From Candidatus Amesbacteria bacterium RIFOXYB1_FULL_44_23 (GTDB lineage Bacteria > Patescibacteriota > Microgenomatia > CAZETR01 > Amesbacteraceae), in the NCBI GenBank assembly GCA_001773775.1, contig MEXR01000043.1, positions 1 through 32,210 of the forward strand: a stretch of DNA of 32,210 nt, given 5' to 3'. Within the stretch, counting starts at the first letter, position 1, and every line of letters starts with the position of its first letter. The translations under genes were made by a program, and so were the position numbers. Under the pieces are notes generated by a model, which did not search any database, had not been told where the DNA came from, and saw only the letters and a list, made by a program, of their open reading frames with translations. Below are positions 2,022 through 27,140 of the stretch, in pieces.

Positions 2022-3134
2022 TTACAATTGGACAATTTTTTCCCAGGGAAATTCCGGGCGACCAAAATGCCCGTAGCGGGCAGTGGGTTCGTAAATCGGC
2101 TGGCGGAGGTTTAAGCCTTCGACAATTCCTTTGACCGAAAGATCCAAAAGTTTGCGGAAAGCAAAATCTTCCAGTGCTGGTTGAGATACTTTTTGTGAGC
2201 CAAAGGTTTCGATCGAAGTTGTGATGGGTTTGGGCTGGCCGATGACGTAGGCCAGTTGGACTTCGCAGCGGCCGGCAAGTTTGTGAGCCACAACGTTTTT
2301 GGCTATGTATCTGGCTGCGTAAGCCGCACTCCGGTCAACTTTACTGGGATCTTTGCCGGACATGGCTCCTCCGCCCATTCGGGACATGCCGCCATACGTG
2401 TCGACAATCAACTTGCGGCCGGTTAAGCCGGTATCGCTAGCCGGGCCGCCTATTTCCCATCTGCCGGTGCCGTTAATTATGAGTTCACTTTTTTTGATTG
2501 AGTATCCGTATTGGGAGAGGACCGGGGAGACCAGATATTTGTAAAGATCGTGGTAAAGCTGAACGTTAGAGATTTTGGGATCGTTGGGGACTGCTACTAC
2601 GACCTGGTTAACCTTAAACGGCCGGCCGTTTTTATATTCGACTTTAACTTCGCTTTTGCCGTCGGGGCGAAGATAGTTAAGTTTTTTTGACTGCCTTAAC
2701 TGGTCCATTTTTTCCACCAACCGGTGAGAAAGAGTTATCGGAAGCGGCATTAATTCTTCAGTTTCGTTTACGGCATAGCCAAACATCATGCCCTGATCCC
2801 CTGCCCCGTCTAAATCGACTCCCAGGGCAATATCGGGAGACTGATGATGGATGGCCACTTTAACCTTTGAAGTATGGGAAAAATGATAGGCTTTTTTGGT
2901 GTAGCCTAATTTTTTAATGACTGACCTGGCGATTTGCTCATATGGAATTTTGTGTTTACAAGTAACTTCTCCGGCAATTACTAATTGTTCGTAGGTGGCC
3001 AGACATTCCACTCCGACTCTGGCTTTGGAGTCTTTGGTCAAAACCGCATCCAGAATAGCATCAGAAATCTGATCGCAAATTTTATCGGGATGGCCGGAAG
3101 CAACTGATTCAGAAGTGAAGTATTTGTAATTCAT
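2022..3134 (-). CDS. metK: S-adenosylmethionine synthetase
   Basis: MetK makes S-adenosylmethionine from methionine and ATP in the cytoplasm. The 370-residue protein shows the family hallmarks: SGHPDKICDQISDAILD at the N-terminus (ATP and metal binding), GAGDQGMMFGYA in the middle (a family signature) and GGGAMSGKDPSKVDRSAAY, the glycine-rich phosphate-binding loop. The length is a little below the usual 380-400. The ATG at 3134 has a good Shine-Dalgarno sequence, AAGGAAG, 5 nt upstream. That site lies in the 3' arm of a hairpin which follows a SAM-I riboswitch, so the gene is very probably repressed by its own product at the level of translation. The SAM made here would serve the methyltransferases in this window among others. 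Confidence 0.97.
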   Translation of the reverse strand: MNYKYFTSESVASGHPDKICDQISDAILDAVLTKDSKARVGVECLATYEQLVIAGEVTCKHKIPYEQIARSVIKKLGYTKKAYHFSHTSKVKVAIHHQSPDIALGVDLDGAGDQGMMFGYAVNETEELMPLPITLSHRLVEKMDQLRQSKKLNYLRPDGKSEVKVEYKNGRPFKVNQVVVAVPNDPKISNVQLYHDLYKYLVSPVLSQYGYSIKKSELIINGTGRWEIGGPASDTGLTGRKLIVDTYGGMSRMGGGAMSGKDPSKVDRSAAYAARYIAKNVVAHKLAGRCEVQLAYVIGQPKPITTSIETFGSQKVSQPALEDFAFRKLLDLSVKGIVEGLNLRQPIYEPTARYGHFGRPEFPWEKIVQL

Positions 3135-3141
3135 ATGGCTT

Positions 3142-3248
3142 CCTTACTTTGTTTAAGTAAGGCGTATTTAATCTAGAATTAGCACCTTTACCTTTTTTAG
3201 GTTGCTGGATGGATTATCGGGCTAGTTCCCTCCCCATCCTCTAAATAC
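3142..3248 (-). promoter_or_regulatory. SAM-I (S-box) riboswitch with ribosome-site-sequestering hairpin
   Basis: Read on the minus strand, the S-box core is present in order: P1 5' arm GTATTTA (3242-3248); P2 with GGATGG pairing CCATCC; the kink-turn and loop segment GGAGGGAACTAGCCCGAT; GCAACC; P3 (ACCT pairing AGGT); the J3/4 signature AAAGGTGCTAATTC (3176-3189); and the P1 3' arm TAAATAC (3164-3170). P4 is very short or absent. Right after P1 comes a perfect 8-bp hairpin, CCTTACTT with AAGTAAGG (3155-3162 with 3142-3149), whose 3' arm holds part of the metK Shine-Dalgarno sequence. There is no U-run, so control is probably translational: SAM binding stabilises P1 and leaves the hairpin free to hide the site. 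Alternative pairings in the unbound state were not resolved. Confidence 0.92.
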
Positions 3249-3255
3249 TGGTAGA

Positions 3256-3264
3256 AGTATATCA
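3256..3264 (-). promoter_or_regulatory. Extended -10 promoter of the riboswitch-metK transcript
   Basis: On the minus strand TGATATACT forms an extended -10 (TGn plus TATACT; hexamer 3256-3261). The predicted start, about 3249, lies one base before the first base of riboswitch P1 (3248), so the aptamer would sit at the 5' end of the RNA. The same TTTGTGATA-ACT string precedes the ATPase gene that starts at 22120. Confidence 0.55.
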
Positions 3265-3268
3265 CAAA

Positions 3269-4222
3269 CTAGCGAATTTCCCTGATACTGAAGAGTTTAT
3301 ACTGAGCTTCGTCAATTAAGTCGTTTCGAACGAAAACTGAAGTGCCGGGATCAAGAAGTACTTTTTCCGGACCGTAACCACATTTGGCCACGGTATCCAT
3401 TCCGGAGTCGGTTTGAGACCAGGAACCGGAGTCGGTGTACTGGGCCAATTTTTCCCAGGTGCCGCCGTTTTTACCATCAGTCATGTCCCGATAAAGTTCG
3501 AGTTTGACTGACTTTTGGTCCGGGTTAGTTCTGACCACAAACTTCATGCCAACCCAGACATTTTTAGGCAGAGTGCCATTTGGGGTATTCCAGGAAGTCT
3601 TATTGTTTTCGCTGGGCATGTTGACGCTGTAAGCGCCTTCGTGAACGACTTCTTTTTGAAATACGGCCCGGCCGTCATATAAAATTCTGCCGTAATACGA
3701 TCTGCCCAGGCAGGGGTCGGAGTCGGCTACGTCCTGATGTTCACTTCTGGTGCCGATGACAAAACCCTGGGACGAGGCTACACCAAATTCGGAAACCCGT
3801 TTGCCGTAGAGAGTGACTTCCACATTTTCCCATTTCAATTTCCGCTTCGGGTCATAAACATACATTCTGGGGGAGCTTCCGGAAATAGTGGCCAGGCCAT
3901 TGCCGTCAAGTTTGACTACCCCATTACCACGGGCAACAAATTCGTTATCGAAAGGATCCACGTCGCCTGAGTTTAAGGTTTGTTTCTGGCCATTGTTCCA
4001 GTCTGAATACCAGACTCTTCCCCCCGGAAGATCCGGATACAGCTTTTCGAGACCGAATTTATCCAATTCTTTTGGTTTGACCTCTTTTTTTGTGGGCGCT
4101 AAGGTTACGGTTGGTGACGAAACTTGAGGAAGGTCATTAACAACCGGAGCCGGCTTTTGAGATATCAAAACAATTCCGGCGATAATTAAAATTAATCCGA
4201 TAATGATTGCACTTTCTTTCAT
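3269..4222 (-). CDS. Membrane-anchored lyase-like jelly-roll protein
   Basis: A 317-residue protein from the ATG at 4222; a GTG at 4243 would add seven residues. It begins with a signal anchor (MKESAIIIGLILIIAGIVLI) and a Pro/Thr/Val-rich spacer, then a single extracytoplasmic domain. The pattern YPDLPGGRVWYSDWNNGQ, the segment PRMYVYDPKRKLKWENVEVT, the basic GKRVSEFG and the later YGRILYDGRAVFQKEVVH recall the Cip1/glucuronan-lyase-like beta-jelly-roll family (PL20 type); this is a judgement from memory of the family, not a search. Cysteines in DPCLGRS and AKCGYG could pair. It is the last gene of the polysaccharide operon and starts just after the stop of the lyase-deacetylase gene, so it probably acts on, or binds, the same uronic-acid-type polymer outside the cell. 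Confidence 0.6.
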   Translation of the reverse strand: MKESAIIIGLILIIAGIVLISQKPAPVVNDLPQVSSPTVTLAPTKKEVKPKELDKFGLEKLYPDLPGGRVWYSDWNNGQKQTLNSGDVDPFDNEFVARGNGVVKLDGNGLATISGSSPRMYVYDPKRKLKWENVEVTLYGKRVSEFGVASSQGFVIGTRSEHQDVADSDPCLGRSYYGRILYDGRAVFQKEVVHEGAYSVNMPSENNKTSWNTPNGTLPKNVWVGMKFVVRTNPDQKSVKLELYRDMTDGKNGGTWEKLAQYTDSGSWSQTDSGMDTVAKCGYGPEKVLLDPGTSVFVRNDLIDEAQYKLFSIREIR

Positions 4223-4248
4223 AGACTTATTGCAGTGTAGCACACGAC

Positions 4249-7200
4249 TTAGCTGGCTAATACCCTGAACACTTTGGCAAAGGCGTTGGTAATTAAGTAG
4301 ATTAAATAGTTACTTTTATTTAAGCTGACTTCCATTTGCCGCGGATAAGGTCGGGCGTCAAATTTTTGATATTGGGTGATTTTTACAGAATAAGTTTCTT
4401 GGGTGGAAACGGACCGGAACATTTTGAACTTATCAACCTTAACACCTTTGATTTTTGATTCGACGGAAATTGTGTGGGCGCCTTTTTTAAGTTGGGCCGT
4501 GACGGTATATCCGCAGTAATATTGGTTTTTGTACAGCGTACATTTTTCGGCCGAAGCGGTTTTACCCACCGGTCTTTTGATTCCATCCACAAAAATATCG
4601 ACAGTGTTTTCCTGGGCATAAACAGGGAGGCTTGCGGCGTTAACAGTACCAAAAACCTCAATGGTGTAGGTATCATCCCGGGAAACAATGAATTTGTTGG
4701 AGATGCGATCTCCGGCATCCCATAAATCAACGATTCCGTAGGAGCTGGGTGTGGGGTCGTAAGAAGACAGGGGTCTAATGCTTTGGCCCGGGTCGTTATC
4801 AATTCTGTAGCCTTCTTCAAACTGCCACCAGGAGTTATAGCCGATGGAGTTTTCAATTTGTTTTGGTGTTAATAACTCCGGCTTGAAGTAGTGCATGTGC
4901 CAAACAAATTCCGTTCCGAATCCGGCGGTTGTCGGGCGGGGCTCCCGCCAGGAGTTATCTTTGGCAATATCCCTGCCGGCTTGGTAATACTTTTTGGTTA
5001 GGTTGACGATGTTTTGATTTTGTTCTCCCCCGGGATAGGCAAACATGGTTACCCGGTAGCCCTGACTCTCCAGCATTTTTCGGGATTCTTCGAGTTGGTA
5101 AACCAGTTCTTTTTGGTTGTAGCGATAGGTCATCAGGTTTCCGGCATTGACGGTGTGAGAACCGATTTCGTTACCGTTTCGGTACAATTCGTCCAATTCA
5201 CTAAGATTCAGGTAGACAGGATTATCGTTGAGGACTCTTTGAGAAATGATGTAAAAAGTAGCAACTGCTCCGTATTTTCTGAAGACGCGGTAGCCGTTGG
5301 TGAAATGATCCTTTCTGCCGTCATCAAAATTAATGACACAGGCTCTTTGAGGAACTTTTTCGGCTTTTAAAACATAGTTTTCCATGATGTCACCGAAAGT
5401 AAACCAGCGGCAGCCGGAAGTATTGGTCAGATAGTCGATTTGTTTTTCAAAATCCGAAACGTGCATCTCCAAACTGGGACTGACGATCTTTTGATCGTCA
5501 TCAATTACATGGTGGTAGCCTAGGATGGGGACGAAGTCTTCCTGTTCGTAAATTCTGAAAGTTTTGATTGCGGGATTTCCGGGAATATTTAAATTCAGTT
5601 TTTGGTCAATGGAATAGTAAGTATCAACTCCGGATATTTCGGCTACGTAAGACGGCCTTTTGGCATATTCCGGATTTGGGTCCGGCTGTTTGGGACTAAT
5701 AACCAGGCTTTGGTCGGCAGCAACTTTTACCTCAAATTTTTCGCTTCCCGGACCAGTTAGCTGCCAATCAGTTTTGCTTTGAGCTAGCTCCATCTGATAC
5801 TCGGCAACCGGTTTTGTGGCGGCCTTGGATTCGGTAAAAAAGTTAACTTCAGCGCTGCTTAGACTTAGTTTGTAAACGCCTTTTTTGGTGACAACGGTAA
5901 TTAAATTATCATTTGAGACGCCGGCGGAAACCAGTCCGCTTTTACTGCCTATTTCCAGCAGAGTTACAAAGGAAGCATTCTGGCTACTGGTTTTGGTTGT
6001 TACTGTGGGACAGGCGACGGTTATTTCATACTCAAAAGAACAAAGTCCGTCTTTAACACTAATCTCTCCACCCTGAATTAACTGATGAATGGTTAGCTTC
6101 TGATTGTCGCCTCCCCAGTCGGCAACCAATTTTCCGTCTTTGATTTCAGTTTTAGCCTGGGGAAATAAATGAAATTGCTGCTCGTAATCATGATCTTTGG
6201 CTGAAATCAGCCGGTCAACTACAACTACAAAATCATGACCCAATAAGGCAACGGATCTTTGGTGCACGGTTTGAGGGTAAAGAGTGTGCTGGGCTGAATG
6301 GATGGTGTAGCCATCTTTTTGCACGAATTTTCCGGGGACCGGAGAGCCGGTTCGTTGGTTTTGTCCGTCAACGATTACGGTATTGTGTCCGGAAGTCCCG
6401 TGAAAGTAATTACGCAACTGGTTCTGGGCTTCGTAGGTGTACAGGCCGGTATCGGTGATCATGGTTTGGCCGTTACTGAAGTGGTTGATATTCAAAGCAT
6501 CCAGGTCGCTATGGTTGGTTCGGTAGGGACCGACGTCGAATATGACCTGGGTTTGATCGGCAAACTTGTTTTCAAACTTGGTTTTTTTGTCCCAGCCGGA
6601 GCGCATGATGGTTTGGCCGGTGGTGGGATAGTATTTGCTTAAATCTTTAGGCTTCTGGCCCTGCCGGCCTTGCGTTAAAACATACAAAAACTCAGGATTT
6701 TCTTTGGAAATTTCCTTAAAAGTGCCGGTATTTCCGATTTGCCGATCAAGGGAGGCCCCTACAATGGGCACTTTTAAATTAGGCTGGAGAATATAAGTGG
6801 CATAGGAGACCATTTTTTTAATTTTTTCTCGAGATGCAAGATCCAGGCCGACTTTATTTTGGGCTATGTACTCATAAATTTTCCAATATTTTTCCAGTGC
6901 GTAAAAGTGATAATAGGGCGAATTTTCAACCAGTGCCCCGTCCTCATCGACTATCGTATCAAGGCTGTTTTTTATTCTCTGTTGAGCTACCTGCTTCCAT
7001 TTTTCGGACCCGAGAAGATCCGGGAAATTAACACCCAGAAGCAAGAGGGCAGCAGCCTGGCTGATGCCGTGGTTGTGTAGGGGTTCGTAGTGGGCCTCGT
7101 TTAACATAAATTCCCCGTGAACCTGTAGTGATTTGAGAATTTTCTCGCTTAAGTCCAAAGGCAAAGCCCCTTCCTGTCTTAGCTTCCACCAGGTATTTAG

Positions 7201-7815
7201 TAGAGTCATGGATCTGAAGGCTACGGCATGATAGTCGTCCCAGGCGTGGGGTTTGCCTGCTCCTTCATCAAGAAAACTGCCGACAGTTTCGACTAATAAT
7301 TTTTGATATTTATCCTGACCGGTTTGTTTAAATGCGTAAAGTAAGTGTCTGGTTTCCCGCAAGCTATAGTACATGAAACGCCAGTACCTTTCGTTAAACG
7401 GATCTTCTTCCCAGGTGGGAGGAAATGACATTTCAATCGGTTCGTAGCGGTCAAACGGCTGCAGACCGGCAATCATCATGTCGGCTGATTTGATATCTCC
7501 CTGGTCGAGAAAGTCGTAGACGATTTCTTTACCGGTGGAAACGGTTGGGTAACTATCAAATATGTGCAACCAGGCTGAGGGACTAGCCTCTGGCCGACAC
7601 AGGTTGCCGTTGGAAGTTTTAATAAAGACCAGGTCAGGGGCACAGCTGAAGGTTTGCTGAGCCTTGGTGATCTTAGTTGTCGTGTGCAGAACTTCGACCA
7701 GCTTTTGATATGTGCCTTTGAGCCAAAAACGATGATACTTTCCGGCTACGGCGACGAAAATTATGATAGCCAGTAGCAGAAACGGAACTTCTTTGGGCTT
7801 TAACCTCTTGACCAT
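4249..7815 (-). CDS. Heparinase II/III-type lyase fused to NodB-type deacetylase domain
   Basis: A 1188-residue multidomain envelope protein. Order: a short basic N-terminus and one membrane segment (about 10-28); a helical toroid like alginate and heparinase II/III lyases (about 120-340); the heparinase II/III beta domain with NHSDLDALNINHFSNGQ, ITDTGLYTYE and YFHGTSGHNTVIVDG (about 430-490); a linker; a polysaccharide deacetylase (CE4/NodB) domain starting VPILGYHHV with NFDDGRKD (Asp831/832), SHTVNAGN (His887) and FAYPGG; and a C-terminal beta-sandwich like a carbohydrate-binding module (about 1010-1150). In the CE4 HxxxH motif the second His is Ala891, so metal binding may be weak or lost. 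The GT2 synthase gene overlaps its start by 16 nt, suggesting coupled translation. Likely role: trimming and de-N-acetylating, or just guiding, the polymer made by that synthase. Confidence 0.85.
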   Translation of the reverse strand: MVKRLKPKEVPFLLLAIIIFVAVAGKYHRFWLKGTYQKLVEVLHTTTKITKAQQTFSCAPDLVFIKTSNGNLCRPEASPSAWLHIFDSYPTVSTGKEIVYDFLDQGDIKSADMMIAGLQPFDRYEPIEMSFPPTWEEDPFNERYWRFMYYSLRETRHLLYAFKQTGQDKYQKLLVETVGSFLDEGAGKPHAWDDYHAVAFRSMTLLNTWWKLRQEGALPLDLSEKILKSLQVHGEFMLNEAHYEPLHNHGISQAAALLLLGVNFPDLLGSEKWKQVAQQRIKNSLDTIVDEDGALVENSPYYHFYALEKYWKIYEYIAQNKVGLDLASREKIKKMVSYATYILQPNLKVPIVGASLDRQIGNTGTFKEISKENPEFLYVLTQGRQGQKPKDLSKYYPTTGQTIMRSGWDKKTKFENKFADQTQVIFDVGPYRTNHSDLDALNINHFSNGQTMITDTGLYTYEAQNQLRNYFHGTSGHNTVIVDGQNQRTGSPVPGKFVQKDGYTIHSAQHTLYPQTVHQRSVALLGHDFVVVVDRLISAKDHDYEQQFHLFPQAKTEIKDGKLVADWGGDNQKLTIHQLIQGGEISVKDGLCSFEYEITVACPTVTTKTSSQNASFVTLLEIGSKSGLVSAGVSNDNLITVVTKKGVYKLSLSSAEVNFFTESKAATKPVAEYQMELAQSKTDWQLTGPGSEKFEVKVAADQSLVISPKQPDPNPEYAKRPSYVAEISGVDTYYSIDQKLNLNIPGNPAIKTFRIYEQEDFVPILGYHHVIDDDQKIVSPSLEMHVSDFEKQIDYLTNTSGCRWFTFGDIMENYVLKAEKVPQRACVINFDDGRKDHFTNGYRVFRKYGAVATFYIISQRVLNDNPVYLNLSELDELYRNGNEIGSHTVNAGNLMTYRYNQKELVYQLEESRKMLESQGYRVTMFAYPGGEQNQNIVNLTKKYYQAGRDIAKDNSWREPRPTTAGFGTEFVWHMHYFKPELLTPKQIENSIGYNSWWQFEEGYRIDNDPGQSIRPLSSYDPTPSSYGIVDLWDAGDRISNKFIVSRDDTYTIEVFGTVNAASLPVYAQENTVDIFVDGIKRPVGKTASAEKCTLYKNQYYCGYTVTAQLKKGAHTISVESKIKGVKVDKFKMFRSVSTQETYSVKITQYQKFDARPYPRQMEVSLNKSNYLIYLITNAFAKVFRVLAS

Positions 7816-19948: not shown

Positions 19949-22120
19949 TTATTTTTTAACCGAATAACGCTCCCTGCTTGATTTGAGGATTTTTTCCCGA
20001 TTTTGATTGACTGATTTATGTGGAGGAAGAGTGGTGGCCAAAAACGGCAGGGACACGGCAGCATCTATGGTCATCTTCAGAGCAATTTGGTGTTTTTGCA
20101 AAGAGACCAAATTGGCAGCTGTAAAGGAGCCGCCAAACTCTGCTTCCATGACCCGGGCGTCGTCTGCTCCCAACACAAAACAAACTGTAGTGCCGACGTT
20201 GCCGAAGATGGCTTTTTGGATCTCCTCCGGAATCTGAGCAATATATTGATTGGCCAAAACCAGCCCCAGGCCGAATTTCCTGGCTTCAGAAAGAATTTTG
20301 ATAAAGCTTTCGGTGGCAAAGTTCTGGAACTCGTCTACATACAAAAAGAACTCCCCTCTTTGATCTTTGGGTTTGTCGACTCTATTCATGGCCGCCAGTT
20401 GAAGCTTAGTTATAAACATGGCTCCTAAAAGGGCTGAGTTGTCTTCTCCCAGCTTGCCCTGAGAAAGGTTGGCGATGAGGATTTTGCCGGAGTTTAGAAT
20501 CTCATCTAACTTGATGGTGGACTTAGGGTGACAAATGAGGTTGTGAATCAGAGGAGAGTTAACAAACTGGCCGACTTTATTGAGGATGGAACTTATCTGC
20601 TCGGCACGGGTTCGCTCCTCCAGGACGTCGTATTCGTTTTGCCAGAAGGCCAGAAGCTGGTGGTTGGTCACCTTGGGGTAGACGGACTTTCTGAATTTGG
20701 CGTCGGTGAGCATTTTGATGACATCAGGCAGGGTTGAGCCGGGGATTTGGGTGAGGGTCAAAAGAGTGTTTCTGAGGTAATACTCCAGTCTGGGACCCCA
20801 GGAGTGACCATAGAGCTTGTGGAAGATGGCTACAATCCCCGAGGAGACCAACTCAGCCTGGTCGGGATTGTCGACTTCCAGGATGTTTAGGGAGATGGGG
20901 AACTCCTTGTCTGCCGGGTTGAAGTAAACTACGTCATTAATCCGGTGTGACGGGATGTAGTTTAAAAGGGCTTCGGCGCTGTCGCCATGAGGATCAATGA
21001 AGGCCACTCCCCTGCCCTTTTTAAAGTCGTCTACGGCCATATTCTCCAGAAGGGTTGATTTACCCGTTCCGGACTTACCCAGGATGTAGGTATGGCGCAG
21101 GCGGTCTGTGAGCTTAAGCCCGAAGGTGGCGGCGGCATTCTTAAAGGTGGTGGTGGCAAAGAAGTTAATTTGGTCGTTGGCCTGCTGGATTTGTGATCCT
21201 TCGCCTTTCTGGTGCACCGGAAGGTTTTCTGGGGCTTCGGAGAAGGAGGCGGAGACGGACCAGGCCACATTAGGGATTTTGGTGTAGATGCCCGGTAAGT
21301 GCCACAAGGAAGACAGCTCCATGACGTTGAGCGTCGTGGGTGGCAAGCTGAGAGACTTAAAAGGAGAGCGAGTGCGAATGCACTCCCACAGACGTTGTTT
21401 TTGCCAGGAGAAGAGCTTGCCTGCAATAAGCGAGTTGCCGTCAGGTCGGTCTAGAACTGATACGGCTCCCCTAAGGTCATGCAGGAGTTCAGGTCGGCTG
21501 GCGGCAAAGCTGATGGTAGTGCCGACCAGGGGGTAAGATAGTTTCTCCTCGACGATTTTTTTGCTCTCCGGGGGTGCCTCCTTGATCAGCTTGCCCATTT
21601 CGTCGTAGTGGGGTTTGGGACGCAGATGACGGTAGGCGCTGTAGATTACCGATTTGGGAGCCGGGGCCAGGACAAACTGGATAAGTATCCGGTCATCAGG
21701 ACCGGCTTTGCTTAAGACTCCCAGAAGCGGCAGCATGGGATCTACCTCTTTGTAGTCAGAATAGTCCCTTAGGGGGAAGTAAGGGGCGTAGGATTGTCGG
21801 ATAATTGCCAGATGGGGAGGAGTGGGCGGCCAGTCTGTCAGGTAGTCTTTGATGTCAGCCATGACCACGTCCGGGTAGGTAGCCATGACTTGGGATTGGA
21901 CAAAGGTGGCCAAATGCTCGGGAAAGACTATGGTGAAGTTAACTTGGCCGGCTACGATAGTGACTTCCAGGCTAAGAAAGAGGGGTTGAGAGCCCAGCCA
22001 CTTACTCAGGAAATGGGGGGATTTGGTCGCCTTGGCCAGGGAAACCAGGAGTTGGGCTGACTGCTCCGGGGTATTTTCTGATTCCCGGGGTACCCGAAGG
22101 GAAAGCAACTTCAAAGCCAT
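19949..22120 (-). CDS. VirD4/TraG-like AAA+ ATPase
   Basis: A 723-residue protein. The N-terminal 320 residues are a beta-rich module without catalytic motifs. The ATPase core follows: Walker A LGKSGTGKSTLLENMA at about 347-362, RGVAFIDPHGDSAEALL, the hallmark VVYFNPADKEFPISLNILE, Walker B EFFLYVDEFQNFAT at about 590, and LANQYIAQIPEEIQKAIFGN (sensor region). This order is that of type IV coupling ATPases (VirD4, TraG, TraD with TraM-recognition) that move DNA or protein across membranes. No membrane segment is visible, so it could be a soluble motor or partner with other subunits. No other type IV genes are in the window. TAGACT (22126-22131, extended -10) ends 5 nt before the ATG, indicating a leaderless mRNA. 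Confidence 0.85.
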   Translation of the reverse strand: MALKLLSLRVPRESENTPEQSAQLLVSLAKATKSPHFLSKWLGSQPLFLSLEVTIVAGQVNFTIVFPEHLATFVQSQVMATYPDVVMADIKDYLTDWPPTPPHLAIIRQSYAPYFPLRDYSDYKEVDPMLPLLGVLSKAGPDDRILIQFVLAPAPKSVIYSAYRHLRPKPHYDEMGKLIKEAPPESKKIVEEKLSYPLVGTTISFAASRPELLHDLRGAVSVLDRPDGNSLIAGKLFSWQKQRLWECIRTRSPFKSLSLPPTTLNVMELSSLWHLPGIYTKIPNVAWSVSASFSEAPENLPVHQKGEGSQIQQANDQINFFATTTFKNAAATFGLKLTDRLRHTYILGKSGTGKSTLLENMAVDDFKKGRGVAFIDPHGDSAEALLNYIPSHRINDVVYFNPADKEFPISLNILEVDNPDQAELVSSGIVAIFHKLYGHSWGPRLEYYLRNTLLTLTQIPGSTLPDVIKMLTDAKFRKSVYPKVTNHQLLAFWQNEYDVLEERTRAEQISSILNKVGQFVNSPLIHNLICHPKSTIKLDEILNSGKILIANLSQGKLGEDNSALLGAMFITKLQLAAMNRVDKPKDQRGEFFLYVDEFQNFATESFIKILSEARKFGLGLVLANQYIAQIPEEIQKAIFGNVGTTVCFVLGADDARVMEAEFGGSFTAANLVSLQKHQIALKMTIDAAVSLPFLATTLPPHKSVNQNREKILKSSRERYSVKK

Positions 22121-22659: not shown

Positions 22660-22758
22660 ATGGCTAAAGAGAAGTTTATTAAAAAACCCAAAGGAATCAA
22701 GCACAAGCAGTGCATCCTCTGGGAGTTGTTCAGAAAAAAGAAAGGCAGTATAAAATGA
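22660..22758 (+). CDS. Short basic upstream ORF (32 residues)
   Basis: ATG at 22660 preceded by AGGAG (22647-22651) at 8 nt, the clearest Shine-Dalgarno sequence in the window. The product, MAKEKFIKKPKGIKHKQCIL then WELFRKKKGSIK, is strongly basic and has one Cys and one Trp. It ends in an ATGA overlap (22755-22758) with the surface-protein start, so ribosomes that translate it would reinitiate there. It may be a functional small protein or mainly a coupling leader peptide. There is no family match that I recognise. Confidence 0.65.
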   Translation: MAKEKFIKKPKGIKHKQCILWELFRKKKGSIK

Positions 22759-24011
22759 AGAAGAAACTGCATGCCGCAGTAAGTTTCGTTTTGGTAGCGA
22801 TGCTTTTAGTCGGATTGTTTTTGAATCCTCAAATTGCATTCGCTAATCCCGATTGGCATGGGTCGACTGATCCACACCCAACCTGCGAAGGTTGGAGTGT
22901 AACCGTCAATACGAACTGGGGGGGCTATGTAGGTTACATAATCGAGTCCACGAATCTGTCAGGTTCATGGACCACTAACCAGGTTGGAGTTGATTGGTAT
23001 GTTTTAATCGGTTGGGATTGGGTTGACGAGAATGGAGTTAGTCACCACGAAGAGTGGGATGACTCAGGCTATATAGCCCGCCCGCCTTGTCCGACTGATA
23101 CAGCCGTGCCTACCGCAACCACCGAGCCGACTGCAACAGCAGTACCGACCAATACCCCGACCTTGGAACCCACGCCTACCACCGAGCCGACTGAGGCACC
23201 CGCCAAAATGCGGATTTGCCATCGAATTGGCGAGTCAGCCCCCTGGGGCTGGCAAGCCATTGAAATAGCAATTGCCGCTTGGCCTAGCCACCAGCAGCAC
23301 GGTGACTTTGAGTGGGAAGGGCCGGAAGAGGACTGGGGGGAGCCAGGAAACGGGGGGATAACCCCCGCCGATCAGTGGTGTCTGGACAACCAGCCCACGG
23401 ATCCTACTCCGACTCCGCTGCCAACTGCGACGCCCATCCCAGACCCAGAATGGGAGTTTGAATGGTCATACGAGGTCAACTGCGTGCAGCCTTGGTTGCG
23501 CGTTAACAACTTGAACTCGGAGACTGTTTGGGTGGAGGGTGAAATCCTGGCAAACGATATTTTGGTGGCTCGTGTGCCACCTCAATATTCTGAGTGCCCT
23601 CCTGGAGGATGGTGTGGTCCCGAAGGTGACATGCCGGCGAATTTCTTTGGCATAGTGACCATGTGGGTTGAAGTATCATACGGTGGTGAAATCGTGGCTG
23701 AAAAAAGGATAAGCGAAGTGCTTAATTGCACGCAGCCGCAGGCGCCAACTGCCACTCCCACCGAGCCATCCGAGACCCCCCCCACCCCGACGCCGGGGAC
23801 TGGGCCAACCAACACCCCTACCCCCACGACCATCGTCCCGCCCCCAGGGCGGACCCCACCCCCTGATGGGGTGATTGTGGATTCCGGAGCTGATCCGGAA
23901 GACTATGATGAAAATGCGATGATGTGGAACATCGGCATATGGGCAGTAATTCTGTGCACGATTGGTGCAATTTGGATTGCAATCCACAATCGTAGTCGTC
24001 GTCGCAACTAA
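22755..24011 (+). CDS. Secreted, stalked surface protein with C-terminal membrane anchor
   Basis: A 418-residue envelope protein. Start chosen at 22755 (MKKKLHAAVS) because it gives a standard signal peptide (cleavage probably after AFA, residue 30) and overlaps the coupled 32-codon ORF; the open frame reaches further back. Order: a Trp/Cys-containing beta domain (about 31-112); a Thr/Pro/Glu stalk with repeats like PTATTEPTATAVPT; a small Cys module MRICHRIGESAPWGWQAIEI then SHQQHGDF, like the CHxxG...HGD module of many surface proteins; a second Pro/Thr linker; another beta domain with cysteines; a third stalk; and a C-terminal membrane segment (MMWNIGIWAVILCTIGAIWI) followed by RSRRR. The gene is richer in G and C than its neighbours. 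Probable adhesin or surface-layer-like role. Confidence 0.85.
   Translation: MKKKLHAAVSFVLVAMLLVGLFLNPQIAFANPDWHGSTDPHPTCEGWSVTVNTNWGGYVGYIIESTNLSGSWTTNQVGVDWYVLIGWDWVDENGVSHHEEWDDSGYIARPPCPTDTAVPTATTEPTATAVPTNTPTLEPTPTTEPTEAPAKMRICHRIGESAPWGWQAIEIAIAAWPSHQQHGDFEWEGPEEDWGEPGNGGITPADQWCLDNQPTDPTPTPLPTATPIPDPEWEFEWSYEVNCVQPWLRVNNLNSETVWVEGEILANDILVARVPPQYSECPPGGWCGPEGDMPANFFGIVTMWVEVSYGGEIVAEKRISEVLNCTQPQAPTATPTEPSETPPTPTPGTGPTNTPTPTTIVPPPGRTPPPDGVIVDSGADPEDYDENAMMWNIGIWAVILCTIGAIWIAIHNRSRRRN
23095..23205 (+). repeat. Thr/Pro-rich stalk-coding repeat
   Basis: Imperfect short repeats of codons for PTA(T)TEPT units inside the surface-protein gene. They encode the first extended linker; similar low-complexity tracts recur at about 23400-23440 and 23735-23870. 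Confidence 0.6.
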
Positions 24012-24018
24012 CCAAAAA

Positions 24019-24056
24019 GGAGAGAGGTTCTCTGTACGTTTGGGGGACCTCTCTCC
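24019..24056 (+). terminator. Perfect 10-bp inverted repeat after the surface-protein gene
   Basis: GGAGAGAGGT (24019-24028) pairs exactly with ACCTCTCTCC (24047-24056) across an 18-nt loop, 7 nt after the stop codon. A pyrimidine-rich tract (CTGTTTCTTTCC) follows instead of a clean U-run, so it is either an imperfect terminator or a stem protecting the 3' end of the mRNA. Confidence 0.55.
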
Positions 24057-24275
24057 CTGTTTCTTTCCAAGCTCCGCCATTAATCCTGGGTTTGACGCCC
24101 TCCAAAAATTCTTTGGAATAAGGCTAGAGCCTTTAAAGATTGATGGCATGGAGGTGTGTGTTGTGAGTAAGGTATCAAGTTGGATATGGGAAATTGCATT
24201 TTGCAATTATTATTTCATTTATTTGAAGTAATTTCCCCCAACCGCTGATCTCCCCAATTACAGCACCACCTCCGA
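24057..24275 (+). other. Intergenic stretch between the inverted repeat and the ribozyme
   Basis: No convincing gene. It contains a second hairpin, AATTGCA (24192-24198) with TGCAATT (24202-24208), loop TTT, followed by a moderately T-rich tract, again terminator-like but weak. A frame at 23962-24231 crosses it but has no ribosome binding site and overlaps the surface-protein gene. Confidence 0.4.
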
Positions 24276-24336
24276 CCGTTTTCCCGCTAAGCGGGACTGA
24301 TGAGCTCTCCGGGTAACCCCGGCAGAACGAAAACGG
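24276..24336 (+). ncRNA. Type III hammerhead self-cleaving ribozyme
   Basis: All hammerhead core residues occur in order with three helices. Stem III (open end): CCGTT (24276-24280) with AACGG (24332-24336). Cleavage position H17 is U (24281). Stem I: TCCCGC (24282-24287), loop TAA, GCGGGA (24291-24296). Core CTGATGA (24297-24303). Stem II: GCTCT and CCGGG (24304-24313), loop TAAC, CCCGG, a bulged C, then AGAAC (24318-24328), with one C-A mismatch. Core GAA (24329-24331), and A15.1 pairs U16.1. The ends lie in stem III, so it is type III. The cleavage triplet is UUU, allowed by the NUH rule but not the fastest. It ends 28 nt before the ATG at 24365. Predicted cut: after 24281. Confidence 0.88.
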
Positions 24337-24364: not shown

Positions 24365-24658
24365 ATGAAGACTGTTTTAATAAAAATTGATAAGAAAATC
24401 CGGACAATGACAGGTCCGGGAATTTCCAGTTATGAAGAGATCTGGGGAGACGTGTGGTATGAAATAGCCCGCTTTTTGTCGGAGAAGCTGCCGGCTGAAT
24501 CTGTGGATGAACTATTAGTGATTATGGAAAGCCAGGCGGATGAAGAAGAGAAGCTTGAAAAATTGGCCGGACTAGTTTCCCGACTGGAAATGGGAAAAAT
24601 GAGACTTTTAGAAAAAATTATTTATTTTTTAGACAACTATGAGCGAACTACTAAATAA
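24365..24658 (+). CDS. Unrecognised small acidic helical protein (97 residues)
   Basis: A soluble protein of mostly predicted helix: an N-terminal strand KTVLIKIDKKIRTM, then WGDVWYEIARFLSEKLP, SVDELLVIMESQADEEEKLE and a last helix RLLEKIIYFLDNYE. No signal peptide and no family that I recognise. A ribosome binding site AAGGG is 4 nt before the ATG. Its end overlaps the following peptidase gene by 20 nt, so the two are translated together and the product may be a cytoplasmic partner of the N-terminal part of that protein. The hammerhead ribozyme lies directly upstream. Confidence 0.65.
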   Translation: MKTVLIKIDKKIRTMTGPGISSYEEIWGDVWYEIARFLSEKLPAESVDELLVIMESQADEEEKLEKLAGLVSRLEMGKMRLLEKIIYFLDNYERTTK

Positions 24659-27140
24659 CGGATCCAGGTTGGAAAACTACGTGGCTAAAATGCAAAAAGA
24701 GCAGGATGGCCTAATTTTTGGGTCAGATTTTTCGCAATATGTGGCCATGGGCAAAAAGGGATTAAAGCTGACCCGTGAAGGGCGGGCGATGGCGGCCCGG
24801 GTGGCTTTACGGGCATTGCCCAGTGATTATTCCGGAAGCCTGGATGAGATGAAAAAGGAGTCCGATGACAAGTTGGCTCAACTTCGACAGTACCGACAAG
24901 GTGAAAAAGTGGAAGAGTCGGAACGAGTGTTTTGGGAAAAAGCCGAGAGATTGGTCAAACAAAGACTGGGTAAGGCCCGGAGGCTATTAACTATGGATCG
25001 AATTTCTGATAGAAGCAGCGAATTGGGACAGGCTATGGACTATTCGGTTAAAAAACTGGGGGGTGAAGCCGGGGTAGTCAAACAGTTTTTGAATTACGGA
25101 TTAGAAGTTGATGATGTTTGTGCTCAATTGGGAATAACCGGCGAAAAGCTGTCAAAAGTCCGGGCATATTGTGATAGCCGTGTGGCAAAAACAATTACGG
25201 AATACACCGGGTCAATGACCGATGGAAGTTTGGAAATCAAAAAACAAATAAGAAAAAATTTGGTTAACCAAGCCTTGCTGTGGCATGACTATTTAAGTGA
25301 TGACAAAGATGCGGTGCAAAATTTGGTATGCGAAGCTGTGAATGGTCTGAGTAATTCCCCTACTTTGCCAATTTCAAGAGTGGTGGAGGTGGAAAATTTT
25401 GATACTTCGCCGAAGTCCAAATTGAAAGTCCTGGGGCAAAAAATGAAAGAGGTATTTGGCGGAATGAAATTTTTGAAGGAAAGGGAGTTTTGGTTGGCTT
25501 TTTTGGGGATATCCAGCGCATTGATAGGAGTTGGCTTGATAGAGATCGATAAAATTGAACAATGGATGGAGCCACTTAAGCCGAGTGCAACAAATCCTGA
25601 TTTTGATCAACCATATACTGATTTAATACAAAAAATGCCGGATCGGCCTCTGGACTTTGCACTGCCCGTCTTAGCCCTCACACCGGAATCAAGTCCAACG
25701 GTTGCACCAACCAGCACAGCTACTCCAGTGGCCCCGATATCCATTATTGATACGATTCTCGAAATCAAGCAATTGATTGTTCCTCACCTTAAAGCGTCAA
25801 AGCCCACGTTTGAGATTTCCAATGATCGTGCAAATTTAGATTTATCCAAGAGTTTAACCATCAAGTGGTCAGACGCTGATGCTAAAAGGATGGGCATGAG
25901 TGCCAATATGCCGTTTGTAACTCGACCCATAACAGCTTTGTCGGTACCCAAGAACATCGAATTGGCTGAGATGTTCGACGGAACCTGGAGAGAAGATCCC
26001 GATCTAACCGGAATTGTTAAAACTACATACCCCGGCAGATTTGTGGTTTGGTGTCATAGCGGAACACCTAATGTAAAACCGGTAGAGATGAACCCAACCT
26101 GGCTTGATAGATGGCTTAAGTTCCATCCGGGTTCTGATGTTGAAAAAAAACAGCAGGTAGAGTTGGGATGCGAGTTGCCCAGGAGATTGGGTGAAAACGC
26201 ACCGGGTAAAATTCTGACCATTGAGCAAAATGGTCAGGAAACCAGGTGGATTGTGACCGACGCAAGAAAATTGAGCGAGCCGGCTTTGTTGGCTACTATG
26301 GGAACAACGGAGGGAAGTATAGTAATGGATTTCGCGCTCGATTTGGCCGGGGTTCCTGCTGAGGTGGCTAATTCTGACGGCCTGACTTTTATAACCTGCG
26401 ATGATTACAACAGCGACACCAAAGAGTTTGATTCCCGGGTGCTTGTGAGCGTGGTACAACTTCCACCTGCAATTGAGCTAGGTGTTTTTGAGACTGATTC
26501 GGAGGCGCAAAAATTGGTTGCCGTTGCCGAAACGGTTAACAGTTTTCAAGAGGAAAATTCTGGACTCCGGATGGGTGATTTTGTTAAAGAGAGTCAGTGG
26601 TTTAAATCCCTACCCAAAACCGAAGCGCAAAATATGACGCCCATTTTAGATACGTTGGTAAATTACGGCACTAACATGTTTCCGAATCCCGGTGAAAGCG
26701 GAATGCAGTGTATCGGTTGGGCTGGACTGAGAGTTGGAGTGATTTCGGACCCATTGTATTTTGGAGGGGATGAAGGAGCTTTGGGTCCTGCCGACGTGGT
26801 TCCCGAAGCGGTTAAGGCTGCATCTTTTAAGGATGATTTACAGGTAATCGTTGATGGGGCGAGGGAATACTGGACGGGGTTTGTTGATTACCGAAAGTTA
26901 AGACCAGGAGATCAGATAATGATGTGGGGTAATCCGGGCGAAGCGGGTCATGTGGTTGTGGTGGAAATGGTCAAAGAAGTAAATGGGGTTTTTTCAGTGC
27001 TGGTGTCCGAAGCTAATCACAATTTTTACCCTGGTCAAGTCAAGCTGTCTACCATAGACAGTCAGGAGGAGTTTGATGATGGGTTTGGAGACAGCCGGGC
27101 TATTTTGGTTAAAAATGAGATTGAAGGAAAAGAAAGATAA
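24639..27140 (+). CDS. Single-pass membrane protein with C-terminal CHAP-like cysteine peptidase domain
   Basis: An 833-residue protein. Residues 1-280 are charged and helical with no signal peptide (cytoplasmic); a membrane segment is at about 282-303 (REFWLAFLGISSALIGVGLI); then an outside part with a Pro/Thr linker (SSPTVAPTSTATPVAP), a middle beta-rich region, and a C-terminal domain of CHAP type. Candidate catalytic residues: Cys691 in MQCIGWAG, His771 in EAGHVVVVEMV and Asn793 in SEANHNFY, with the typical RPGDQIMMWG turn before the His. CHAP enzymes cut peptidoglycan peptides. The middle region may be substrate-binding. The cytoplasmic part is unrecognised. Coupled to the 97-residue gene, it may remodel the wall in step with display of the surface protein encoded upstream. 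Confidence 0.75.
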   Translation: MSELLNNGSRLENYVAKMQKEQDGLIFGSDFSQYVAMGKKGLKLTREGRAMAARVALRALPSDYSGSLDEMKKESDDKLAQLRQYRQGEKVEESERVFWEKAERLVKQRLGKARRLLTMDRISDRSSELGQAMDYSVKKLGGEAGVVKQFLNYGLEVDDVCAQLGITGEKLSKVRAYCDSRVAKTITEYTGSMTDGSLEIKKQIRKNLVNQALLWHDYLSDDKDAVQNLVCEAVNGLSNSPTLPISRVVEVENFDTSPKSKLKVLGQKMKEVFGGMKFLKEREFWLAFLGISSALIGVGLIEIDKIEQWMEPLKPSATNPDFDQPYTDLIQKMPDRPLDFALPVLALTPESSPTVAPTSTATPVAPISIIDTILEIKQLIVPHLKASKPTFEISNDRANLDLSKSLTIKWSDADAKRMGMSANMPFVTRPITALSVPKNIELAEMFDGTWREDPDLTGIVKTTYPGRFVVWCHSGTPNVKPVEMNPTWLDRWLKFHPGSDVEKKQQVELGCELPRRLGENAPGKILTIEQNGQETRWIVTDARKLSEPALLATMGTTEGSIVMDFALDLAGVPAEVANSDGLTFITCDDYNSDTKEFDSRVLVSVVQLPPAIELGVFETDSEAQKLVAVAETVNSFQEENSGLRMGDFVKESQWFKSLPKTEAQNMTPILDTLVNYGTNMFPNPGESGMQCIGWAGLRVGVISDPLYFGGDEGALGPADVVPEAVKAASFKDDLQVIVDGAREYWTGFVDYRKLRPGDQIMMWGNPGEAGHVVVVEMVKEVNGVFSVLVSEANHNFYPGQVKLSTIDSQEEFDDGFGDSRAILVKNEIEGKER

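What the first reader, a model, noticed from the sequence alone, without database searches (positions are those of the whole stretch)
24276..24336. A complete type III hammerhead ribozyme between two envelope genes
The full catalytic core (CUGAUGA, GAA, A15.1-U16.1, H17) occurs with three well-paired stems in the correct order: stem III 5 bp open, stem I 6 bp with a UAA loop, stem II 10 bp with one mismatch and one bulge. A chance match of all these is very unlikely. Hammerheads are known from bacteria, but I know of no described case in this setting: between a surface-protein gene and a wall-peptidase unit. A cut after 24281 would separate the two messages and leave a 2',3'-cyclic phosphate end on the upstream RNA. 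Loop I is very short, so the usual loop-loop contacts may be unusual.
Basis: partly seen in the sequence, partly recalled or inferred. Interest (0 to 1): 0.88.

Follow-up and report, generated by a model that had tools for sequence, protein, structure and literature searches.

The report
Hammerhead ribozyme in Patescibacteria envelope genes
A 61-base stretch between two cell-surface genes of an uncultured Patescibacterium encodes a very probable self-cutting hammerhead RNA, one of a large family in these bacteria that the standard RNA library misses; this copy belongs to a structural subtype with an unusually short loop paired with a single-base bulge.

Summary
Rfam gives no hammerhead hit in the window, but blastn finds the element in two other genera of the family, and the stems re-pair: 8 of 21 pairs change on both sides among three sequences. 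Covariance models from these recover 154 distinct type III hammerheads, in 66 of 374 class and 41 of 380 phylum genomes. G5, A6, G8, A9, G12, A13 and A14 are essentially invariant; H17 is never G; all eight U15.1 changes carry A16.1. RF00008 matches most relatives tested, always below its cut-off. The position is conserved: G003 has a hammerhead upstream of its CHAP homologue, and G013 has one after the same gene block, at a contig end. The copy belongs to a subtype in which a 6-bp stem I with an NNA triloop goes with a one-base bulge in stem II (17/22 versus 1/132, p = 2.6e-17), a candidate replacement for the usual loop-loop contact. Neighbouring genes are mostly chromosomal, not phage. Likely role: cutting after U24281 in the CHAP operon leader, giving a 5'-OH mRNA capped by a hairpin. 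Cleavage and role are untested.

The parts
24276..24280 (+). stem III, 5' strand (CCGUU); U24280 = U16.1
   Evidence: 4 of 5 pairs change on both sides among three relatives
24281..24281 (+). H17 (U), predicted cleavage after this base
   Evidence: never G in 154 relatives
24282..24296 (+). stem I hairpin, 6 bp UCCCGC/GCGGGA with UAA triloop
   Evidence: covariation in the wider set; triloop subtype
24297..24303 (+). catalytic core strand CUGAUGA (C3-A9)
   Evidence: conservation in 154 copies
24304..24328 (+). stem II: 5-bp base with one CxA mismatch, then 5 bp, UAAC loop
24323..24323 (+). bulged C in the 3' strand of stem II, proposed contact for the stem I triloop
   Evidence: bulge goes with the triloop in 17/22 versus 1/132 copies
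24329..24331 (+). core strand GAA (G12, A13, A14)
   Evidence: invariant in 154 copies
24332..24336 (+). stem III, 3' strand (AACGG); A24332 = A15.1
   Evidence: 8/8 U15.1 variants in relatives carry A16.1
24187..24273 (+). conserved leader just upstream of the ribozyme; its end is C-rich, G-poor and unstructured (CCCCAATTACAGCACCACCTCC)
   Evidence: aligns with the G003 leader, score 37 versus shuffled 19 +/- 2.7, max 34 of 300
24019..24056 (+). terminator-like hairpin after the upstream gene
22710..24011 (+). upstream gene: Thr/Pro-rich secreted, membrane-anchored surface protein
   Evidence: no Pfam family
24365..24658 (+). downstream gene 1, 97 aa, starts 29 nt after the ribozyme
24639..27140 (+). 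downstream gene 2, 833 aa, CHAP domain at the C-terminus (below the Pfam cut-off)
   Evidence: homologues in G003, G009, G088

Best explanation
Window 24276-24336 is a self-cleaving type III hammerhead ribozyme. The nascent RNA folds into the three-way junction and cuts itself between U24281 and U24282. The upstream fragment ends in a 2',3'-cyclic phosphate; the downstream fragment starts with a 5'-OH directly at the 6-bp GC-rich stem I hairpin and carries the 97-aa and CHAP genes. The short NNA triloop of stem I most likely docks on the single-base bulge and CC/GG platform of stem II in place of the common loop-loop or pseudoknot contact. Most likely role: constitutive trimming of the leader of the CHAP operon, giving an mRNA with a hairpin-capped 5'-OH end and detaching the C-rich leader. 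Shown: sequence, fold, covariation, core constraint, conserved position, subtype correlation. Inferred: catalysis of this copy, the triloop-bulge contact, the effect on expression. The confidence given is for the ribozyme; the leader-trimming role alone deserves about 0.5.
For: Fold and core. Relatives with compensatory changes (39-sequence set: 20 of 21 pairs change on both sides, 96% of cells paired). Strict core in 154 copies and H17 never G, the constraint expected of the reaction and not of a structural hairpin. All eight A15.1-to-U changes compensated at 16.1. Same-subtype relatives match RF00008 at E 3e-5 and 0.007. Conserved position: G003 hammerhead 95 nt upstream of its CHAP homologue; G013 hammerhead after the same gene block. 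Leader conserved with G003. Triloop-bulge rule. UxU at 10.1-11.1 in 4 copies matches a mismatch known to be tolerated (PMC3088659).
Against: No cleavage data. The window itself is not matched by any Rfam hammerhead model. This copy has a CxA mismatch at the second pair of stem II and may be slower, though a G119 copy (L060) has a mismatch there too. G009 and G088 have the CHAP gene without a detected ribozyme, so it is not essential to the operon. No promoter could be placed. The G013 contig ends before any CHAP gene. The leader function is inference.
Confidence: 0.85

Rival explanations
1. The ribozyme serves 3'-end formation of the upstream message: the cut leaves a defined 3' end with a cyclic phosphate, in place of or after a weak terminator.
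For: In relatives the gene before the ribozyme is on the same strand in 66 of 80 cases versus 55 of 81 for the gene after it (counts). A strong hairpin (-10 kcal/mol or better) lies within 50 nt upstream in 39/153 versus 9/153 shuffled, often flush with stem III, as in the G293 array. In G013 an intrinsic terminator follows the ribozyme directly.
Against: In the window the hairpin lies 220 nt upstream and is itself terminator-like; the flanking upstream RNA is unstructured and the ribozyme is 29 nt from the next start codon.
Confidence: 0.35
2. A decayed or inactive copy of a once mobile or phage-borne hammerhead.
For: CxA mismatch in stem II; single copy in this genome; hammerheads in G002 sit in repeated units.
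Against: All core bases intact; conserved position across genera; covarying stems; 0 viral contigs with the subtype patterns; no real phage match.
Confidence: 0.08
3. Only a terminator or palindromic repeat; the hammerhead is a coincidence.
For: TCCCGCTAAGCGGGA alone recurs in many genomes of the class.
Against: No U-tract after stem I; covariation in all three helices; conserved catalytic strands and H17 rule.
Confidence: 0.02
4. A regulated switch in which the leader, a ligand or translation decides whether the ribozyme folds and so controls the CHAP gene.
For: Leader conserved with G003. In G119 and G264 a leader reading frame starting MKKRL ends on the UGA of the core (read by hand).
Against: No alternative fold or aptamer was identified; no leader frame ends on the core in the window (read by hand).
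Confidence: 0.12

Closest known systems
Type III hammerhead ribozyme (Rfam RF00008 Hammerhead_3)
   Same: Strand order stem III - H17 - stem I - CUGANGA - stem II - GAAA - stem III; core; covarying stems; RF00008 matches 9 of 10 genomes tested at E <= 1.
   Different: None of those matches reaches the curated cut-off (48.5 bits); the window copy is missed altogether; 6-bp stem I with NNA triloop and a long bulged stem II.
Clustered bacterial/prophage hammerheads (Perreault et al. 2011, PMC3088659)
   Same: Hammerheads between genes, sometimes in same-strand clusters; transcript processing proposed and cleavage shown there for several.
   Different: The window has a single copy; neighbours here are mostly ordinary chromosomal and cell-surface genes; host group Patescibacteria not covered in the papers found.
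Extended hammerheads with loop I-loop II contacts or pseudoknot (PMC6155905, PMC3088659)
   Same: Need for a stem I-stem II contact at physiological Mg2+.
   Different: Here the candidate contact is a terminal triloop of stem I with an internal one-base bulge of stem II. Whether this exact pairing is among the contacts tabulated in the supplement of PMC3088659 could not be checked.

Membership tests
Type III hammerhead ribozyme (structural class) | Core C3 U4 G5 A6 N7 G8 A9 / G12 A13 A14 | tested here: met
   24297-24303 and 24329-24331; near-invariant in 154 relatives
Type III hammerhead ribozyme (structural class) | H17 is A, C or U, directly 5' of stem I; A15.1-U16.1 pair | tested here: met
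   U24281; A24332-U24280; relatives C 96, U 41, A 17, G 0
Type III hammerhead ribozyme (structural class) | Three helices around the core, stem III open | tested here: met
Type III hammerhead ribozyme (structural class) | G10.1-C11.1 pair opening stem II | tested here: met
   G24304-C24328; GC in 149 of 154; the next pair is a CxA mismatch in the window
Type III hammerhead ribozyme (structural class) | Stem I-stem II tertiary contact | tested here: inconclusive
   triloop and bulge co-occur 17/22 versus 1/132; no structure
Type III hammerhead ribozyme (structural class) | Self-cleavage 3' of H17 | not testable with these tools
   needs in vitro transcription
Curated model Rfam RF00008 (detection, not a biological feature) | Score above the gathering cut-off | tested here: not met
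   no match for the window; relatives up to 39.1 of 48.5 bits
Prophage hammerhead array | Several hammerheads nearby and phage genes around | tested here: not met
   one copy in the genome; no phage genes recognised next to it; 0 viral contigs with the subtype patterns
Intrinsic terminator | GC hairpin followed by a U-tract at the element | tested here: not met
   stem I is followed by CUGAUGA; the scan finds terminator-like sites only near 23955-23969 and 24019-24059, none at the element

The most novel reading that the evidence does not exclude
Patescibacteria use hammerheads as a general, chromosomal, non-phage RNA-processing device that sets mRNA ends, in part by pairing a 3' hairpin with a ribozyme flush behind it; and one lineage of these ribozymes evolved a triloop-to-bulge contact between stems I and II not described before.
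Probability: 0.35. Interest if true: 0.82.

Novelty: new variant of a known kind. Interest (0 to 1): 0.62.

Why it matters
What hammerheads do in bacteria is an open question, and known cases cluster in prophages. About one in six sampled genomes of this class carries at least one that the standard Rfam cut-offs miss, between ordinary genes, with arrays and conserved positions that make an mRNA-processing role testable. The triloop/bulge subtype is a specific, mutable prediction for how a hammerhead with almost no loop I could reach high speed.

Tried and rejected
Chance: descriptor on 100 shuffled windows, 1 weaker hit. Rfam: whole window and the 221-nt region at E <= 10, no hammerhead. Phage origin: 0 hits in viral contigs for two subtype patterns, one partial 25-nt phage match, PHROGs of 145 neighbours mostly glycosyltransferases and enzymes. 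A 27-codon frame in the window leader (read by hand) is not kept in G003 and was dropped. First class-wide counts with model R1 are inflated by bare stem I hairpins (false matches in L067, L068 and L070) and are not used; R2 counts are. In-frame leader stops seen in G119/G264 are absent from the window.

Full report
OBSERVATION. Its free fold is the three-way junction. A descriptor scan finds it as the only site in the window; 100 shuffled windows give one weaker hit.

RELATIVES AND COVARIATION. blastn over 95 related genomes found the element in G013 (83%) and G002 (81%), both other genera of the same family, with the alignment limits falling on the ribozyme. G013 is Candidatus Amesbacteria RBG_19FT_COMBO_48_16, so the window comes from an Amesbacteria-like Patescibacterium (Microgenomates; class name from general knowledge). 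Among these three sequences 61 of 63 pair cells are standard pairs and 8 of 21 pairs change on both sides; shuffled and slid controls are far lower. A covariance model (R1) brought in a clean set of 39 hammerheads with 20 of 21 pairs covarying. Model R2 finds hits at E <= 0.001 in 66 of 374 genomes of the class and 41 of 380 of the phylum.

CORE CONSTRAINT. In 154 distinct copies: C3 153, U4 147, G5 153, and A6, G8, A9, G12, A13, A14 all 154. H17 is C 96, U 41, A 17, G 0. Eight copies have U15.1, and all eight have A16.1. 10.1-11.1 is GC in 149, UU in 4 (UU is known to be tolerated, PMC3088659). The models favour the core, so its conservation is partly built in; the absence of G at H17 and the 15.1-16.1 compensation were not built in to the same degree. 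RF00008 matches 9 of 10 of these genomes at E <= 1, best 39.1 bits against a cut-off of 48.5; the controls (3 of 14 well-known genomes at E <= 1) show that the weakest of these are chance level. The G002 and G013 counterparts of the window element score 31.5 and 23.1 bits, which ties the subtype to the known family.

SUBTYPE. Copies with a 6-bp stem I and a triloop (ending in A throughout: TAA, TTA, TCA, GAA, ATA, AAA, CTA, CAA) have a one-base bulge in the 3' strand of stem II about five pairs from the core in 17 of 22 cases; other copies in 1 of 132 (Fisher p = 2.6e-17; relatedness is not corrected for). The bulged base is C 11, U 5, A 1. None of the 69 copies of the second batch is of this subtype, so the positive half of the test rests on the first batch. 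The bulge was scored by a rule written after the pattern had been seen in that batch. I read this as a docking contact replacing loop-loop contacts; this is inference.

POSITION. In the window the order is 19221 (+), 19949-22120 (-; VirD4/TraD-like ATPase), surface protein (+), hammerhead, 97-aa gene, CHAP gene. G003 has the same block (ATPase 77% identical), a Thr/Pro-rich secreted protein, a hammerhead with a different stem II, then a CHAP-gene homologue. G013 has the block, a PKD surface protein and the hammerhead; its contig ends there. G009 and G088 have the CHAP gene without a detected ribozyme. The 87 nt before the ribozyme align between window and G003 beyond 300 shuffles.

SETTING IN RELATIVES. 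The gene before the ribozyme is on the same strand in 66 of 80 cases, the gene after it in 55 of 81 (crude ORF calls). In a quarter of copies a strong hairpin lies within 50 nt upstream (39/153 versus 9/153 shuffled), often ending 0-2 nt before stem III, for example GGGGUGGGGGCGAAAGCCCCCACCCC in G293. Arrays exist: eight copies on one strand in 11 kb of G293:C5, six in G495:C16, three in G002:C2, with repeated flanks. Neighbour proteins are chromosomal: glycosyltransferases are commonest, and phage structural families do not recur.

MECHANISM. Best reading: the ribozyme cuts co-transcriptionally after U24281. The downstream mRNA then begins at the base of the stem I hairpin with a 5'-OH, features that in other bacteria slow 5'-end-dependent decay (general knowledge). 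Because a terminator-like hairpin follows the upstream gene and the leader is conserved, I favour leader trimming over separation of a common transcript, at roughly 55:35. The cut itself is strongly predicted but not shown.

NOVELTY. Hammerheads between bacterial genes, singly or clustered, are known, with processing proposed and cleavage shown for some (PMC3088659); reviews stress the phage link (PMC6155905). I found no paper in the held library joining hammerheads with Patescibacteria; subscription papers and supplements were not searched. Hence a new variant of a known kind.

Noticed in passing
window 3161-3251 (-), gene 2022-3134 (-): A SAM-I riboswitch candidate (42.3 bits, cut-off 44.4) directly upstream of an S-adenosylmethionine synthetase gene: very probably real, just under the cut-off.
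   Followed up: partly
L063 (G002:C2) 2242-4689; L056 (G002:C34) 1105-2166: Three same-strand hammerheads about 1.0-1.4 kb apart with repeated flanks; the stretch between two of them holds a DUF3800 gene on the opposite strand, and the C34 copy also lies by a DUF3800 gene. Looks like a repeated or mobile cassette.
   Followed up: partly
L058 (G293:C5:14000-33900): Array of eight hammerheads between surface and unknown genes beside a VirD4/TraD-like ATPase, several preceded by an identical 26-nt hairpin; repeated leaders suggest gene-cassette duplication.
   Followed up: partly
L055 about 740-817 and L041 about 1485-1550: A leader reading frame starting MKKRL runs through stem I and stops on the UGA of the hammerhead core, just before a downstream gene start: translation could block ribozyme folding.
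   Followed up: no
class-wide, e.g. L008-L024: The bare hairpin TCCCGCTAAGCGGGA recurs in many genomes of the class without the rest of the ribozyme.
   Followed up: no
window 4249-7815 (-): One 1188-aa protein with heparinase II/III-like and polysaccharide deacetylase domains beside a glycosyltransferase.
   Followed up: no
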